Shown here in pieces: positions 28,506 to 35,561 of a stretch of 64,000 nucleotides of DNA. The notes beneath the pieces are model-generated. The model worked only from the letters and a program-made list of their open reading frames with translations. It searched no databases and was not told the origin of the DNA. The stretch covers positions 270,351 to 334,350 of the forward strand of contig NZ_SCHL01000002.1 in assembly GCF_004099695.1 (NCBI RefSeq). Direction: 5' to 3'. The position numbers were made by a program, and so were the translations under genes. The DNA is from Methanosarcina sp. MSH10X1. Its GTDB lineage: Archaea > Halobacteriota > Methanosarcinia > Methanosarcinales > Methanosarcinaceae. Position 1 is the first letter of the stretch; the number at the start of each line of letters is the position of its first letter.

Positions 28506-29756
28506 TTACAAATCCTCGATCTCAAGCAATTTCGAAGCCGCAGCGAGGTTCATCCGGATAATTTCCAGTGCGAGCCCGTAATCTATGTGATCAAGCGTAT
28601 CATTAACAGTATGGATATTGCTATTTGAACTGTCAGTTCCTTCTATAGTGAGAACCGCAGGGATGAGCTTATCAATGAATGGGACGTGGTCGCTGTTGAA
28701 TGGGCTCTCTGAGGTCTGGACTATGAGTGATGTATATGTGGCTGCTGCTTGAGCAAGTTCCTTCATCAGAGCCCTGGAAATCGGTGCCCCCTCAAGCAGG
28801 ACAGCCGGGGACTCGGTATTCAGGGTCGCAACCATATCCATGTTTATAACGGCACAAATTCGGTCACATTCGTTTTTCGACAAGCTACTTACATACTGTT
28901 TGCTCCCGTAAAGTCCCTGCTCCTCCCCTCCAAAGAGGATAAACCGTAAATCATGTTTTGACGGATATTCTGCAAGCACGCGTGCGATTTCCAGGACCCC
29001 TGCAGCCCCGCTTGCGTTGTCATCCGCACCGGGGGCGGGTACATCTCTTCCCCCCCTTACGTTAATCGAATCAAGATGGGCAGTAATAAGCAGAAGTTTA
29101 CGGTTTTCACTCCCTCTGCCCGGGCGGTCTGCCACGACATTAGCGCTGCTGTCGCTCCGAATATTTACTGGCTGCTGTCCTACCTGATAACCAAAATTTT
29201 GAAACTGATTGGCCGCCCAAAGTGCAGCGCTGATAAATTGAGAACTGAAGGAATGGCGCGTCTGGAAATCAACAAGTAAGCTCATGTAAGTACTGTATGT
29301 GGTCTGTGATACAGCCGCAACACTTGCCTTCAGGCCGGGCAGGACAGGCTGGGCTTCAGGTCTTGCTATATCCATGATCACACTGCCCATTGCCAGCGGG
29401 CGCACTGTCCACCAATCTTCTTTACTTTCAGCGAGGCGGCTTGCTTCTTCAGGAAGAAGGTCGGCTACAAGGTAACGGCCTTTCTCCAAAACTATCCGGG
29501 CGTCAGGATACATATTCTGGAATTCCCTTCCTGTCTGGATAACGAGATAAAGCCGACCTTCCAGTTCGTGACTTTCGGCGTGTTCGGGACTTATGCCTGC
29601 CTGTCCGGCTTTACTGGTAAATTCAACCCATTCTTCCGTAGCTGTCCAGACTATAGTCTTATCCCCCAGGCGGGCCCAATGCGCCCCGAAATCTTCTGCC
29701 GATTTCTCAACAATGTGTTCTTCGCTTGAATCCGAGAGTACTGCATATTTCCCCAT
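28506..29756 (-). CDS. M28-family zinc aminopeptidase
   Basis: This 416-aa protein carries a complete M28 catalytic domain in its C-terminal half: 'LLITAHLDS' (His ligand, about 225), 'GADDNASG' (bridging Asp), 'FGGEEQGLYGS' (catalytic Glu and Glu ligand), 'VINMDMV' (Asp ligand) and 'NSNIHTVNDT' (last His). Residues 1-190 form a separate region without known motif, possibly a prodomain. There is no signal peptide. The ATG follows a G6 run by 4 nt. It lies 19 nt after the 109-aa gene, so it is the last gene of the five-gene protease cluster. It probably trims peptides produced by the upstream endoproteases. Confidence 0.88.
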   Translation of the reverse strand: MGKYAVLSDSSEEHIVEKSAEDFGAHWARLGDKTIVWTATEEWVEFTSKAGQAGISPEHAESHELEGRLYLVIQTGREFQNMYPDARIVLEKGRYLVADLLPEEASRLAESKEDWWTVRPLAMGSVIMDIARPEAQPVLPGLKASVAAVSQTTYSTYMSLLVDFQTRHSFSSQFISAALWAANQFQNFGYQVGQQPVNIRSDSSANVVADRPGRGSENRKLLLITAHLDSINVRGGRDVPAPGADDNASGAAGVLEIARVLAEYPSKHDLRFILFGGEEQGLYGSKQYVSSLSKNECDRICAVINMDMVATLNTESPAVLLEGAPISRALMKELAQAAATYTSLIVQTSESPFNSDHVPFIDKLIPAVLTIEGTDSSNSNIHTVNDTLDHIDYGLALEIIRMNLAAASKLLEIEDL

Positions 29757-29775: not shown

Positions 29776-30105
29776 TCAAGAAGATGCTGGCAGCTCCCGC
29801 ACCTTCAATATCTTTTCATCACAATGAAGGATTTCAATGATTCCAGGCGGTTGAACGTTCCCCTCAAAAGATATACGCACACGTCTGGAAGTTTCCGCTT
29901 CCCAGTGTCCATTAATTCCATCAAGGGCATCAGTACGACCGATTCCCCAATCGATGAACACCCCATCTTGCCTGAACTCGATACCATCCCTGCCTCGAGC
30001 TGGGGGAAATTCGTATTCCTCCGGCCTATATACAGTTACTCCATTCTGGTCTTCTTCAAAGGAGTGTATCCATTTTCTAAAGATCTCATCAGGTAATTCG
30101 GTCAT
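29776..30105 (-). CDS. 109-aa unknown protein between two proteases
   Basis: This small acidic protein has no recognised family and no signal peptide. It reads as mainly beta: 'VYRPEEYEFPPARGRDGIEFRQDGVFIDWGIG' followed by 'GHWEAETSRRVRISFEG' and 'IIEILHCDEKILKVREL', a pattern of short strands like a small lipocalin-like or beta-barrel fold. A single Cys is near residue 95. It sits between the ulilysin homologue and the M28 peptidase in a tight minus-strand cluster, where the other small gene is an emfourin-type inhibitor. By analogy it may inhibit or chaperone one of the proteases; this is inference only. Confidence 0.6.
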   Translation of the reverse strand: MTELPDEIFRKWIHSFEEDQNGVTVYRPEEYEFPPARGRDGIEFRQDGVFIDWGIGRTDALDGINGHWEAETSRRVRISFEGNVQPPGIIEILHCDEKILKVRELPASS

Positions 30106-30315: not shown

Positions 30316-31329
30316 TCACTTTGGCATAGGCATTTTACGTTCAGATGATGCCCCTTCTCTCCCTCTGCTTTCCACTCCGGCAAGGAACGATGACCGCGGC
30401 CCTTCAAGGCAGGCATTTACCCGGATCGCCTGACCTTGAGTAAACATAACCATGCATTTGTCATCAACGTAGTCCATGTAATTCATGAACATATCACCGT
30501 CTGGTCCGTTGCCACAACTAATATGTGGAAATGACGGAACCCCATAGTTAGGGTGGCCCTGATTTGGAGTATCATCAACCTCATCCGAGAGTGAACACGG
30601 GTCTTCAAAACGTAGTTCATCACCCCATATATGGTAAAGATTTAACCAGTGACCTATCTCATGGGTGGCAGTCCGTCCCTGATCAAATGGCGGTCTGGCA
30701 GTTCCAAGGGTACCGAATCCTGTGTAAGTAACGACAACGCCATCTGTTTCAGCTGGCCCTCCTGGAAATTGTGCGTAACCCAGTAGACCTCCTCCAAGCT
30801 TACAGACCCAAATATTCAGATAATGGTCAGTCGGCCATGCATCCTTGCCGCCGGTAGCTTCGAATTTAACTTTATCATCCGTACGAAAAGAGGTCACTAA
30901 GCTACGGGTGCGAGTAATTCCTGTAGTCGGAGTCCCATCCGGGGCTCTCGTTGCAAGGAAAAATTCAATTCCGATGTCTGCTGTAAGACCACTCCAGACA
31001 GGAGGCACCTGCGATACGTCTGAATTCAGCTTACGGAAGTCTTTATTAAGGACATCGATCTGGCTCATGATCTGGGCATCAGAAATATTCTCCTCTTCTT
31101 TACTCCATACAACATGAACGACCACAGGAATCTGGATTATTCCTGTCCTGGATATTGCTCGAAATCCTTTTTTATATTCAAGTGCAAGAGTTTCAATTTG
31201 ATCACGCGCTTTCATATACGACTCATTCGCCAGTAACCTGTGATGAACTTCCATCGCTCCGCATTTACGCTGAGTTGGCACTTCAGAAGGCTCTTCCCCT
31301 ATCTCCTTATTCTCAGATTTTTCTTCCAT
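30316..31329 (-). CDS. Ulilysin-like M43 (pappalysin-family) metalloprotease
   Basis: This 337-aa zinc endopeptidase closely resembles ulilysin, the archaeal pappalysin from Methanosarcina acetivorans that cleaves before Arg and needs calcium. The extended zinc motif '[14 protein letters not shown]' holds the three ligands and catalytic Glu, and the Met-turn is in '[11 protein letters not shown]'. Cys-containing segments '[12 protein letters not shown]' and '[11 protein letters not shown]' match the disulfide and calcium sites. About 60 N-terminal residues form the autolytically removed prosegment, and the C-terminal tail after 'GPRSSFLAG' is also removed in the homologue. No signal peptide. 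The ATG follows a G6 run. Third gene of the cluster. Confidence 0.93.
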
Positions 31330-31464: not shown

Positions 31465-31782
31465 TCAGTCCTTTCTAAGCCGCTCCCACGCAAGCTCCTG
31501 CAAAAACTCTAATAGCGGTTTCAATTGATCTGGTACCGTAGCATCATTAAAAGATAATGATTTTTTCTGACCCCCTTCATAAATTATGAGTTTATAATAA
31601 AACACATCAGGAGGGCCAGCAGTACCGGGAGCGATCTCACTTTGTTGAAGTTCAAGTACTCTGGAGCTTTCTATAAGCCCCAGGAGCTTATTTGCAGTTT
31701 CCGGAGGAAGTTTATCAGTGTCTCCACGATATGTCAGGTCAATATTGGCGTATCCGCCTGAGATCTCAAACTCGATGTGCAT
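31465..31782 (-). CDS. Emfourin-like inhibitor of M4 protease
   Basis: This 105-aa protein is similar in layout to emfourin, the protealysin inhibitor of Serratia. It begins 'MHIEFEISGGYANIDLTYRGDTDKLPP', continues 'FYYKLIIYEGGQKKSLSFNDATVP' and ends 'LLEFLQELAW'. These N- and C-terminal patterns are family features as I recall them; no alignment was run. It lies 66 nt downstream of a protealysin-like M4 protease on the same strand, the usual arrangement for emfourin genes. The expected role is a tight cytoplasmic block of the M4 enzyme. Reported members are mainly bacterial, so an archaeal copy is notable. Confidence 0.8.
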   Translation of the reverse strand: MHIEFEISGGYANIDLTYRGDTDKLPPETANKLLGLIESSRVLELQQSEIAPGTAGPPDVFYYKLIIYEGGQKKSLSFNDATVPDQLKPLLEFLQELAWERLRKD

Positions 31783-31848: not shown

Positions 31849-32955
31849 TTAAAACTGCGTTATCTTGGCGGTAGGAGTGTTAGGGATACTGGTTTCATCT
31901 TTCGCTGGTAGCCCGACTTCTTTGAATGCTGCTCTCACCTTTTGTGTGGATCCGCTTCTTACCCTTTCACGTTTTATCAGAAGCTGCGTTGCTTTGACGA
32001 TCTGTGCTACTGCGTCGTTAAAAGTTGCTGTAGGCCAGAGATTCTGCAATGCAGTATACCAGATAAGTGCTGCATTTTCGGTTTCCAGTTCCCTTGCTGC
32101 AAGGTAAAACGCCTTGTTCATGATCCCGCTGTTGATATGTACACCGCCGTTATCGTTAGGACCTCTGTAAATATCCCTCATATGGTCAGGCTGGGGATCT
32201 TTACCCATAAGCTCATTATCATATGCAGTGCCTGGAGAAGCCATGCAGCGAAGGGCTTCTCCATACAATTTCGGTCCCATAACCTCATCACCGATAAGCC
32301 AGTCGGCATCGTCTGCAGCCGATTTTTCAACATATTGCGTAATTACGGTCCCGAACACATCTGCGAAATGCTCATTCAATGCACCCGATTGGTTACGGTA
32401 TTCAAAGTTGGAAGTCCATTGCACAACACCATGACCAAGTTCGTGAGCTATCACATCAAGCGATCTGGCAAAGCTGGAGAATATCGCTCCATCCCCATCC
32501 CCAAGAGTAATCTCCTTGCCATTAAAAAAAGCATTATTATATTTTGTGCCAAAGTGAACATTACATATTATATCCATGCCGTTGTTATCAATGGAATCGC
32601 GGCCCAGTTTAGCCTTAAAGTAATCGCGGAAATTTCCTATATGGTCGTAAGCATTGCTCACGGCATCATCTTCTACAACGGGTCCTCCTTCACTTATTAT
32701 TAATTTTAACCGATACTCCATCGTGTTTTGAGAATCATATATATGCCTGGCGGCCTTCCCTGCGGCTGCAGCAACTCCCATAAGCGCCCCTATATCCGGG
32801 ACTTCAGATGCTCTATTCTTGCGGCTGCTCCTGTCCTGGTGAAGTGTTAAGGTTGCATCCTCAACTCCTGCCTTTGCCAGGTTTTCGAGAATAAAAGGCG
32901 GAACAAACGTGCAGAAACATTTATTGTCAGTTCGTGGATTCGTAAAATAATTCAG
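31849..32955 (-). CDS. Protealysin-like M4 metalloprotease
   Basis: Thermolysin-family protease of about 368 aa with a short protealysin-type propeptide. Zinc motif 'HELGH' is at 171-175, with Gly where HELTH is usual. The third ligand is Glu195 in 'GALNEHFADVFG', and the catalytic His is in 'DNGGVHINSG'. Calling from ATG 32781 drops 58 residues. The open frame upstream encodes 'KCFCTFVPPFILENLAKAG', the conserved PPxxL prosegment start of protealysins. No ATG, GTG or TTG exists in that part; CTG at 32955 follows a GGGGGG run (32962-32967) by 6 nt. No signal peptide. It heads the cluster with the emfourin-like gene next. Enzyme class firm, start inferred. Confidence 0.88.
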   Translation of the reverse strand: MNYFTNPRTDNKCFCTFVPPFILENLAKAGVEDATLTLHQDRSSRKNRASEVPDIGALMGVAAAAGKAARHIYDSQNTMEYRLKLIISEGGPVVEDDAVSNAYDHIGNFRDYFKAKLGRDSIDNNGMDIICNVHFGTKYNNAFFNGKEITLGDGDGAIFSSFARSLDVIAHELGHGVVQWTSNFEYRNQSGALNEHFADVFGTVITQYVEKSAADDADWLIGDEVMGPKLYGEALRCMASPGTAYDNELMGKDPQPDHMRDIYRGPNDNGGVHINSGIMNKAFYLAARELETENAALIWYTALQNLWPTATFNDAVAQIVKATQLLIKRERVRSGSTQKVRAAFKEVGLPAKDETSIPNTPTAKITQF

Positions 32956-33294: not shown

Positions 33295-34016
33295 TTAAGG
33301 CAATTCCAGTTCTGCAACTACCGGCGCATGGTCCGACTCCGGGAATTCGGTATCCGTTGCAAAGGCTACAGTCTCATCATGAAGCAGTTCGTTGTGTACC
33401 TCGGAATGCTTAAAGTATTCAAACGGGTTTCTTGAGATCAGCAGGTATAGGTATCGAATTTCTGGCCTTTGATGTCTGTGGGCATCCGAAATTTTAAATG
33501 GAGATTGATAACGTCCGGTATCCGGTTTCCAACGCCTATCCTGGCGTGAAAGATCGGCCTCTTCCAGCTGATTCTTTCTGCCTTCGGTTCTTCGCCTGGT
33601 ATTGCTACCGCTGTTACAATCTTGTAAAACGTATCAGGGGTAAAATGGTGTTTGTACTGGTGGGACTCCAGGATTCCGTATCGGCTTAAAATTACAAGGG
33701 TGTGTTCATTATAAACTCCAGTCCCGTCCCCATTCTTTGTGGATATCCGGTGAAAGCCGGCGTACTGCGTTTCCTGAATCGGGGCGTCAAGCGCCAGCAG
33801 GCGGCGAGGAAATCCTGCCGCTTCCTTTCCATTGACCTCCTGAAGGCAGAAAATATCGGTATTGAGCCTGAGTAGCTGCAGCTGCATTAGAGGGATGTGT
33901 TCTTTTAATGCTGGTCTCTCATTGGTTTTGCCATCAAAGTTTTCAAGATTGAAGGTTGCTATGCGTAATTTGCTCGTACTATCCCTCATAAAAAACTTCA
34001 GCTCGGATCCTTGCAA
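33295..34016 (-). pseudogene. Endonuclease/exonuclease/phosphatase-family gene with internal deletion
   Basis: The N-terminal part (34016 to 33438) encodes 192 aa with the EEP start 'LRIATFNLENFDG' and the Mg-binding Glu in 'IFCLQEVNG', then stops at 'KFDTYTC'. Immediately after, in another frame, the DNA encodes 'LLISRNPFEYFKHSEVHNELLHDE' and the family's last motif 'ESDHAPVVAELELP', ending at 33295. The middle, normally about 100 residues with catalytic His and Asp, is missing. The simplest reading is a deletion plus frameshift that killed a DNase-I-like nuclease. The first part could still be translated as a truncated protein. Confidence 0.8.
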
Positions 34017-34229: not shown

Positions 34230-35561
34230 ATGAAAAAAAGCTTGTTTCACAGAAATTCCTATCCGGCGTATGCCACTCTCAACGACTGGATTCTACACGA
34301 AGCAATTCCTTTCTCTATCGATTCGCCTGAAAACCTCAACGCTGCCATTGACAGGCTTATTGATTCACTTGATGGCTCGGTGGAGTTGCTCGGCTTCGGA
34401 GAAGCACTTCACGGCGGCGAAGATATTCTTATACTCCGTAATCGGCTCTTCCAGCGCCTGGTTGAGGTGCATGGCTACAGTGCAATTGCTATCGAGAGCA
34501 GTTTCCCCAGGGCACATCTGGTGAATGAGTATATAGCTGGTCGTGGTCCTGCATCGTATGAGGCTGTGCAGGACTCCGGGTTTAGCCACGGTTTTGGCAG
34601 GCTCGATGCAAACTGGGAACTGGTGGAGTGGATGAGGTGGTACAATGCAGATCCTTCCCATCGAGTCAAACTCCGGTTCTACGGTTTCGATAGTCCTACA
34701 GAAATGACTTTTAGCGATAGTCCAAGGCAAGTTTTGTACTTTGTTCTCGATTACCTCGCCTCGGTCGATATTGCTAGCAGCCAGGAGCATAGGGAACGTA
34801 TCGATGCATTTCTTGGCCAGGACTCCGATTGGGAGAATCCCGATGCAATGATGGACCCGGCTAAGTTTATAGGCTTATCACCGGCTGCAACGACACTTCG
34901 GATTGAGGTGGAGGATCTCATTATGGAACTGCGCATACGCCGTCCCGAACTTGTGGCTAAAAGTGATAAAAGTTGCTATCTGGAAGCCATGCATTATGCG
35001 AATGTTGCACGGCAGTTATTGAACTATCATGCCGGGCTGGCGCGAAAATCGGATTCTGGCGAAAGGCTTGTAAGAGGGCTCGGTATTCGTGACCTGATGA
35101 TGGCGGATAATCTGGCATACATAGTATCCCGTGAGTGTGATCGGGGAAAAGTGCTGGTCTTTGCTCACAGCAGCCATCTGCAGCGCGGAAAGGCACAGTG
35201 GCAGTTGGGTACTGATTTACTCATATGGTGGCCAGCGGGAGCGCAGCTCAATGAAATCTTCGGCCCGCGCTATGTCGTCATTGGTTCGGGAATAGGTGTC
35301 TCTGAGGCGAATGGCATCGCGCAGCCCGAAAACAGCACTCTTGAGGCTCGACTGACTAATGCGCCGGGATCGGTACGGTTCGTTCCAACTCATAAAGGTC
35401 AGGGGCTACCAACCCCGGAAATTGTAGCTCTTCCTACTCGTTCGGGCAGTATGAAAAACTCAAGCTACTTTGCACTAACTCCCCAAAGCTTAACCGATTT
35501 TGACTGGCTGGTTGTCCTGGACTCGACAGCATACGCGCGCGGTGGGCCTCCGCTCCAATAA
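34230..35561 (+). CDS. Erythromycin-esterase-family protein
   Basis: This 443-aa protein belongs to the EreA/EreB superfamily. The first active-site block 'ELLGFGEALHGGEDILILRNRLF' is near 53-75, the Glu-containing 'AIAIESSFPRAHLVNEYI' near 85-102, 'GFDSPTE' near 151-157 and the distal His in 'KVLVFAHSSHLQRG'. True members open macrolide lactones, but most homologues have unknown esters or amides as substrates, and Archaea are naturally insensitive to macrolides. No signal peptide. A clear 'aggaggt' site precedes the ATG. It is divergent from the nuclease pseudogene and probably acquired by transfer. Confidence 0.85.
   Translation: MKKSLFHRNSYPAYATLNDWILHEAIPFSIDSPENLNAAIDRLIDSLDGSVELLGFGEALHGGEDILILRNRLFQRLVEVHGYSAIAIESSFPRAHLVNEYIAGRGPASYEAVQDSGFSHGFGRLDANWELVEWMRWYNADPSHRVKLRFYGFDSPTEMTFSDSPRQVLYFVLDYLASVDIASSQEHRERIDAFLGQDSDWENPDAMMDPAKFIGLSPAATTLRIEVEDLIMELRIRRPELVAKSDKSCYLEAMHYANVARQLLNYHAGLARKSDSGERLVRGLGIRDLMMADNLAYIVSRECDRGKVLVFAHSSHLQRGKAQWQLGTDLLIWWPAGAQLNEIFGPRYVVIGSGIGVSEANGIAQPENSTLEARLTNAPGSVRFVPTHKGQGLPTPEIVALPTRSGSMKNSSYFALTPQSLTDFDWLVVLDSTAYARGGPPLQ

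What the first reader, a model, noticed from the sequence alone, without database searches (positions are those of the whole stretch)
29776..30105. 109-aa protein as a possible new protease inhibitor or chaperone
It is small, acidic, predicted beta-rich and lies between the ulilysin homologue and the M28 gene, 19 nt from the latter. In the same cluster the other small gene encodes an inhibitor of its upstream protease. The repeated protease / small protein pattern suggests an analogous role for ulilysin or M28.
Basis: inference. Interest (0 to 1): 0.62.

Follow-up and report, generated by a model that had tools for sequence, protein, structure and literature searches.

The report
Barrel-protein partner of ulilysin-type protease
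This small methanogen gene belongs to a large unnamed family of predicted barrel-shaped proteins that almost always sit next to, or are fused to, ulilysin-type proteases, and it is most likely the protease's own built-in restraint (inhibitor), which can be tested directly because ulilysin is an established laboratory enzyme.

Summary
Window 29776-30105 (-) is a real 109-aa gene (pI 4.7) between an M43 pappalysin (ulilysin orthologue) and an M28 peptidase, 19 nt from the latter. It matches no Pfam, NCBIfam or PDB sequence. AlphaFold2 gives an 8-stranded lipocalin-like barrel (pLDDT 87).

A motif scan gave 121 loci, all encoding this family. Of 80 non-lipoprotein members, 78 adjoin a ulilysin-type pappalysin, across ten bacterial phyla, Methanosarcina and a (pro)phage. 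Three are natural fusions, one pappalysin-barrel-M28. In Methanosarcinaceae the same 6 of 112 genomes hold both genes. Conversely, 16 of 16 ulilysin-like genes in Oxalobacteraceae have the barrel; 0 of 2 distant pappalysins do. M28 is present in a minority of loci, so the main partner is the pappalysin. A mostly Bacteroidota lipoprotein branch usually lacks that neighbour.

Best explanation: a cognate inhibitor or latency factor of the pappalysin. The functional link is near certain (0.95); inhibition is inferred (0.55). It is a new family of a known kind (inhibitor encoded beside its protease: emfourin, potempins), unrelated in sequence to emfourin.

The parts
29776..30105 (-). 109-aa lipocalin-like barrel protein: proposed cognate inhibitor/partner of the pappalysin
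   Evidence: ORF and orthologues; AF2 8-strand barrel; adjacency in 81 of 121 loci
29989..30018 (-). codons 30-39 (EYEFPPARGR): Pro-rich beta2-beta3 loop; R37 and R39 are invariant in the 81-sequence alignment and lie outside the search motif; proposed reactive loop (inference)
30316..31329 (-). M43 pappalysin, ulilysin (LysargiNase) orthologue; no signal peptide visible; cysteine-switch motif RKCG; proposed target
   Evidence: PF05572; 594 bits to ulilysin in the PDB
28506..29756 (-). M28 peptidase, third member of the module, fused to the other two in Rhodococcoides trifolii
   Evidence: PF04389; triple fusion L047
31465..31782 (-). emfourin (M4 protease inhibitor family); context only
   Evidence: PF20242, 57 bits, cut-off 27; no similarity to the 109-aa protein
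31849..32781 (-). M4 (protealysin-like) peptidase; context only, absent beside the module in 4 of 5 other Methanosarcina loci
   Evidence: PF02868/PF01447

Best explanation
The gene encodes a small leaderless lipocalin-like beta-barrel that binds the neighbouring ulilysin-type pappalysin and holds it inactive in the producing cell. It is a second lock on top of the enzyme's cysteine-switch zymogen. The protease would act only after it leaves the cell, is diluted, or reaches a cell or compartment without the barrel; M28 would then trim the peptides. Shown here: the gene, the tight genetic link and fusions to the pappalysin, and co-occurrence. Predicted: the fold. Inferred: direct binding, and that binding inhibits. 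Speculative: that the invariant PP[AS]RxR loop offers an arginine to the pappalysin S1' pocket, which prefers basic residues.
For: Of 121 loci found by a motif that says nothing about neighbours, 81 adjoin a pappalysin; 78 of 80 non-lipoprotein members do. A sample by profile instead of motif agrees: 3 of 4 new Actinomycetota hits lie beside a pappalysin, the fourth beside M28. Three single-ORF fusions: L131, L134 (pappalysin-barrel), L047 (pappalysin-barrel-M28, 711 aa). The same 6 of 112 Methanosarcinaceae genomes carry both genes. Converse: 16 of 16 ulilysin-like genes in Oxalobacteraceae have it, 0 of 2 distant pappalysins; Streptomycetaceae 3 of 6 versus 0 of 21 distant ones. Compartments match: leaderless enzyme with leaderless barrel; in L093 (signal peptide) and L130 (T9SS tail) the barrel is a lipoprotein. 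Precedents: emfourin inhibits the adjacent protealysin 1:1 at the active-site region (PMC9505478); lipoprotein potempins precede and inhibit KLIKK proteases (PMC7296668), a group that includes the pappalysin mirolysin (PMC6949598). Basic S1' preference is said to be family-wide (PMC6949598). Distance matrices of barrel and pappalysin correlate, Mantel r 0.64, 0 of 2000 permutations as high, though shared ancestry inflates this.
Against: No binding or inhibition was tested. Natural fusion of an inhibitor to its own protease is unusual and fits a targeting, folding or binding domain as well. The PP[AS]RxR loop is equally conserved in Bacteroidota lipoproteins with no adjacent pappalysin, so it may be structural. 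Five Hymenobacter genomes have the lipoprotein but no detectable pappalysin. Two Streptomyces members are unlinked from their genomes' pappalysins. In L048 the barrel looks like a lipoprotein while the enzyme looks leaderless. Foldseek matches to lipocalin-like proteins are weak by E-value (best 0.06, probability 0.98), and no known inhibitor is in the top 50.
Confidence: 0.55

Rival explanations
1. The barrel is a positive partner of the pappalysin: a folding chaperone, targeting or substrate/ligand-binding subunit, sometimes fused as a C-terminal domain, that works with M43 and M28 as one peptide-degrading module.
For: Fusions place it as a C-terminal domain of an apparently intact pappalysin and between pappalysin and M28. 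Lipocalin-like folds often bind ligands; the best Foldseek hits are Bacteroides lipocalin-like proteins. Ulilysin would leave peptides with N-terminal Lys/Arg that an M28 aminopeptidase could trim (inference).
Against: Recombinant ulilysin self-activates without any partner (Tallant et al. 2006, as cited in PMC6949598), so a chaperone is not required. Several barrel genes are separate and divergently transcribed (Streptomyces), which suits a regulator at least as well as a subunit.
Confidence: 0.27
2. Immunity protein (a special case of the inhibitor reading): the pappalysin, with M28, is a toxin delivered into competitors or released on lysis, and the barrel protects the producer and its kin. 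Inhibition is the mechanism, competition the purpose.
For: The protealysin-emfourin pair, present in the same cluster, has been proposed to be such a system (PMC9505478). A PAAR-metalloprotease T6SS effector with a potempin-A-like immunity protein is reported in PMC13340143. A complete M28-M43-barrel cassette sits between terminase and portal genes of a (pro)phage (L137), as morons do. Patchy distribution; the tree groups the archaeal clade with actinobacterial members.
Against: No delivery gene recurs near the module. Orphan barrels without protease, expected for immunity genes, are confined almost wholly to the lipoprotein branch.
Confidence: 0.2
3. The barrel serves the M28 peptidase, not the pappalysin.
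For: It is 19 nt from M28 in the window and fused to it in L047; in L221 M28 is the only protease seen beside it.
Against: M28 was detected in only 13 of the genome tiles plus the phage locus, whereas a pappalysin adjoins 78 of 80 non-lipoprotein members; two fusions are pappalysin-barrel.
Confidence: 0.05
4. A general lipocalin-like domain with no protease role; the neighbourhood is hitch-hiking.
For: The Bacteroidota lipoprotein branch sits mostly beside other genes (PolX-like, EVE-domain-like by eye), not proteases.
Against: Adjacency in ten bacterial phyla and archaea with varied gene order and orientation, three fusions and a phage cassette are hard to explain by hitch-hiking.
Confidence: 0.03

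Closest known systems
Potempins (Tannerella forsythia inhibitors of KLIKK proteases, a group that includes mirolysin, a pappalysin)
   Same: Small proteins encoded beside a metalloprotease and specific for it; lipoproteins there, as the barrel is in L093 and L130; mirolysin is about 50% identical to ulilysin (PMC7296668, PMC6949598).
   Different: The window protein is leaderless and archaeal; no sequence match to any PDB chain, a set that should include potempin A (8B2Q, named in PMC13340143); no potempin among the 50 best fold matches.
Emfourin (PF20242), protealysin inhibitor
   Same: Small leaderless protein beside a leaderless metalloprotease, in the very same window cluster; emfourin acts 1:1 on the active-site region (PMC9505478).
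   Different: No sequence relation (hhalign probability 0.2%); its target is M4, not M43.
Lipocalin-like families of Pfam (Lipocalin_4 PF13648; PDB 4gzv, 4iab, 4i95, 4qrl)
   Same: Predicted 8-strand barrel; 5 of 81 members touch PF13648, best 1.4e-6; Foldseek probability 0.85-0.98.
   Different: The window protein itself gets no Pfam hit; no protease link of those proteins is known to me.
Inh/APRin (PF02974) and staphostatins (from general knowledge, not tested structurally)
   Same: 8-strand barrels encoded beside the protease they inhibit.
   Different: Inh inserts its N-terminus into the active site; here the N-terminus before W12 is variable in length and sequence.

Membership tests
Emfourin (PF20242) | Profile match above the curated cut-off | tested here: not met
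   0 Pfam hits at E<=1 for the protein; hhalign probability 0.2%
Potempin-type cognate inhibitors | Gene beside a cognate metalloprotease | tested here: met
   81 of 121 loci; 78 of 80 non-lipoprotein
Potempin-type cognate inhibitors | Sequence similarity to a potempin of known structure | tested here: not met
   No PDB chain matched by phmmer or by profile at E<=10
Potempin-type cognate inhibitors | Inhibits the adjacent protease | not testable with these tools
   needs an enzyme assay
Lipocalin-like domain (PF13648 and relatives) | 8-stranded barrel | tested here: met
   AF2 model, 8 strands, pLDDT 86.7; barrel part of the L134 fusion mostly 93-96; predicted, not solved
Lipocalin-like domain (PF13648 and relatives) | Profile match | tested here: inconclusive
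   none for the window protein; 5 of 81 homologues, best 1.4e-6
Inh/APRin (PF02974) | Profile match and a conserved N-terminal trunk that inserts into the active site | tested here: not met
   N-terminus variable; no PF02974 hit
Ulilysin-type pappalysin (the neighbour) | HExxHxxNxxH-type zinc site, Met-turn, Cys-switch, homology to ulilysin | tested here: met
   594 bits to ulilysin over full length; [19 protein letters not shown] and RKCG present

The most novel reading that the evidence does not exclude
A previously unnamed family of lipocalin-like barrels is the dedicated inhibitor/immunity protein of ulilysin-type pappalysins in archaea and bacteria, and travels with M43 and M28 as a mobile module, also in a phage. 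It would block the protease with an arginine-presenting loop matched to the enzyme's basic S1' preference, while a lipoprotein branch guards secreted pappalysins in Bacteroidota.
Probability: 0.25. Interest if true: 0.75.

Novelty: new variant of a known kind. Interest (0 to 1): 0.6.

Why it matters
Ulilysin (LysargiNase) is a structural prototype and a widely used proteomics enzyme; I know of no established biological role or natural regulator for it. A dedicated partner would give its first endogenous regulator and a handle on its function. The family has no Pfam or NCBIfam model although it spans ten bacterial phyla and Methanosarcina. An orthologue 76% identical lies directly beside the ulilysin gene in G075, whose single 5,751,492-base contig has, from memory, the size of the M. 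acetivorans C2A chromosome, the source of laboratory ulilysin; so the claim can be tested in one assay.

Tried and rejected
A single-protein scan of genome contigs found nothing, and the divergent alignment A2 had no stretch conserved enough for a scan; the degenerate motif W.H..EED.....V[YF]RP worked. Its residues are therefore invariant by selection and are not used as conservation evidence; R37, R39, D59, W68 and L100 lie outside it.

An Inh-like N-terminal-trunk mechanism was considered and disfavoured, because the N-terminus is variable. A search for a delivery system among recurring neighbours gave only antisense artefacts and lineage-specific clusters. No Rfam element lies in the cluster. 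The phage collection has no homologue. Papers on a pappalysin inhibitor operon were searched for; none was found in the held library.

Full report
1. Observation. The ORF at 30105->29776 on the minus strand exists as described: 109 aa, ATG, AAAGGGA upstream, pI 4.74, 210 nt after the pappalysin gene and 19 nt before the M28 gene. Five Methanosarcina genomes hold orthologues at 71-78% identity, with differences concentrated at third codon positions. Cluster identities on the minus strand, 5' to 3': M4 peptidase, emfourin, M43 pappalysin (ulilysin orthologue), the 109-aa protein, M28 peptidase. No Pfam hit at E<=1 and no PDB chain at E<=10 match the protein.

2. Family. tblastn on plasmids found 26-33% homologues in Rhizobium, Burkholderia and Azospirillum, all beside a pappalysin; Rhizobium also keeps M28 remnants and, in one plasmid, an M4 gene. 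120 of the 121 carry an ORF with the motif, and the remaining one (L085) also encodes the family. The motif carries no information about neighbours, so adjacency is a fair test within this sample, though sampling is uneven across genera (many Streptomyces, Janthinobacterium, Hymenobacter).

3. Neighbours. 81 of 121 adjoin or are fused to a ulilysin-type pappalysin; 38 of the 40 others are Bacteroidota lipoproteins, and the other two are Streptomyces. These totals are my tally over those calls. One search gives 74 members called non-lipoprotein with a pappalysin and 3 called lipoprotein with one. Two of the latter (L047, L131) are fusions misread by the lipobox test; L044, L107 and L118 are lipoproteins it missed; L091, L119 and L121 were cut by tile ends and confirmed; L085 was added; L048, L093 and L130 are lipoproteins with a pappalysin. 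So 78 of 80 non-lipoprotein members adjoin a pappalysin. Order varies (mostly downstream on the same strand, divergent in Streptomyces, sometimes upstream), so it is not one inherited block. M28 was found in 13 tiles. The ten phyla are Actinomycetota, Pseudomonadota, Acidobacteriota, Planctomycetota, Verrucomicrobiota, Cyanobacteriota, Myxococcota, Methylomirabilota, Bipolaricaulota and Bacteroidota.

4. Fusions. L131 (Rhodococcus wratislaviensis) and L134 (Geodermatophilus) are pappalysin-barrel single ORFs; L047 (Rhodococcoides trifolii) is pappalysin (5-300), barrel (307-400), M28 (417-708), the same order as the genes in the window.

5. Co-occurrence and converse. In 112 Methanosarcinaceae genomes the same six have both genes. 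In Oxalobacteraceae all 16 ulilysin-like genes have the barrel and the two distant pappalysins do not. In Streptomycetaceae 3 of 6 ulilysin-like genes have it within 1.5 kb, and none of the 21 distant ones. Profile-based samples, free of the motif's bias: Actinomycetota, 4 new hits, three beside a pappalysin and one beside M28; Bacteroidota, 12 new genomes, one beside a pappalysin and the rest mostly lipoprotein-like without it in 1.5 kb. The family is rare, about 1% of Actinomycetota and 4% of Bacteroidota genomes sampled. Barrel and pappalysin distance matrices correlate (r 0.64), which species descent alone could partly produce.

6. Fold. AF2 with 81 homologues: 8 strands, pLDDT 86.7, pTM 0.81. 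Foldseek/PDB: Bacteroides lipocalin-like proteins, probability up to 0.98 but E only 0.06 and TM about 0.5. In the L134 fusion model the barrel domain scores mostly 93-96 and again hits lipocalin-like proteins (probability up to 1.00, E 0.008), while the enzyme part hits pro-ulilysin 8cdb at E 7e-33. Five of 81 homologues weakly match Pfam Lipocalin_4.

7. Mechanism. The ulilysin-type enzymes in most of these loci have no visible signal peptide, keep the cysteine-switch motif, and sit with a barrel that also lacks one; when the enzyme has a signal peptide (L093) or a T9SS tail (L130), the barrel is a lipoprotein. That compartment matching favours direct contact, though only two loci show it and L048 may be an exception. 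Pappalysins prefer a basic P1' residue through a conserved Asp in S1' (PMC6949598). The barrel has an invariant PP[AS]RxR-type segment in a long loop between strands 2 and 3, a candidate for a substrate-like reactive loop. It is also present in the lipoprotein branch, so it may be a fold hallmark; this step is speculation.

8. What is known. Emfourin inhibits protealysin 1:1 from the same operon, and the pair has been proposed as effector/immunity (PMC9505478). Potempins are small lipoproteins encoded directly before the KLIKK proteases they inhibit (PMC7296668). The window family works, by hypothesis, like these, but it is not a member of emfourin (tested, not met) and shows no sequence relation to any PDB chain.

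9. Mobility. L137, an IMG/VR contig, carries M28-M43-barrel between terminase and portal genes. The archaeal clade is single and groups with actinobacterial sequences (support 83/86), suggesting acquisition by transfer.

10. Verdict. Partner of the pappalysin: 0.95. Inhibitor or latency factor: 0.55.

Noticed in passing
31465-31782 and 31849-32781 (-): An emfourin next to a protealysin-like M4 peptidase in an archaeon; among five other Methanosarcina barrel loci only L016 also has this pair nearby, so it is a separate module.
   Followed up: partly
L137:5639-7900: Complete M28-pappalysin-barrel cassette inserted between terminase large subunit and portal genes of a (pro)phage contig.
   Followed up: partly
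L008:6179-6859: Rhizobium leguminosarum plasmid keeps M28 only as three fragments in different frames beside an intact pappalysin and barrel gene: M28 seems dispensable.
   Followed up: no
L018, L032, L041, L112, L113, L224: Hymenobacter genomes carry a tandem second, more divergent copy of the lipoprotein barrel next to the first.
   Followed up: no
L025, L120: Pappalysins without visible signal peptide, with a Gly-rich N-terminal stretch and C-terminal DUF346 repeats; how they leave the cell is unclear.
   Followed up: no
33438-34016 (-): 192-aa ORF with only a partial Exo_endo_phos match, perhaps a truncated gene.
   Followed up: no
34230-35561 (+): Erythromycin-esterase-like protein (PF05139) beside the protease cluster.
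   Followed up: no
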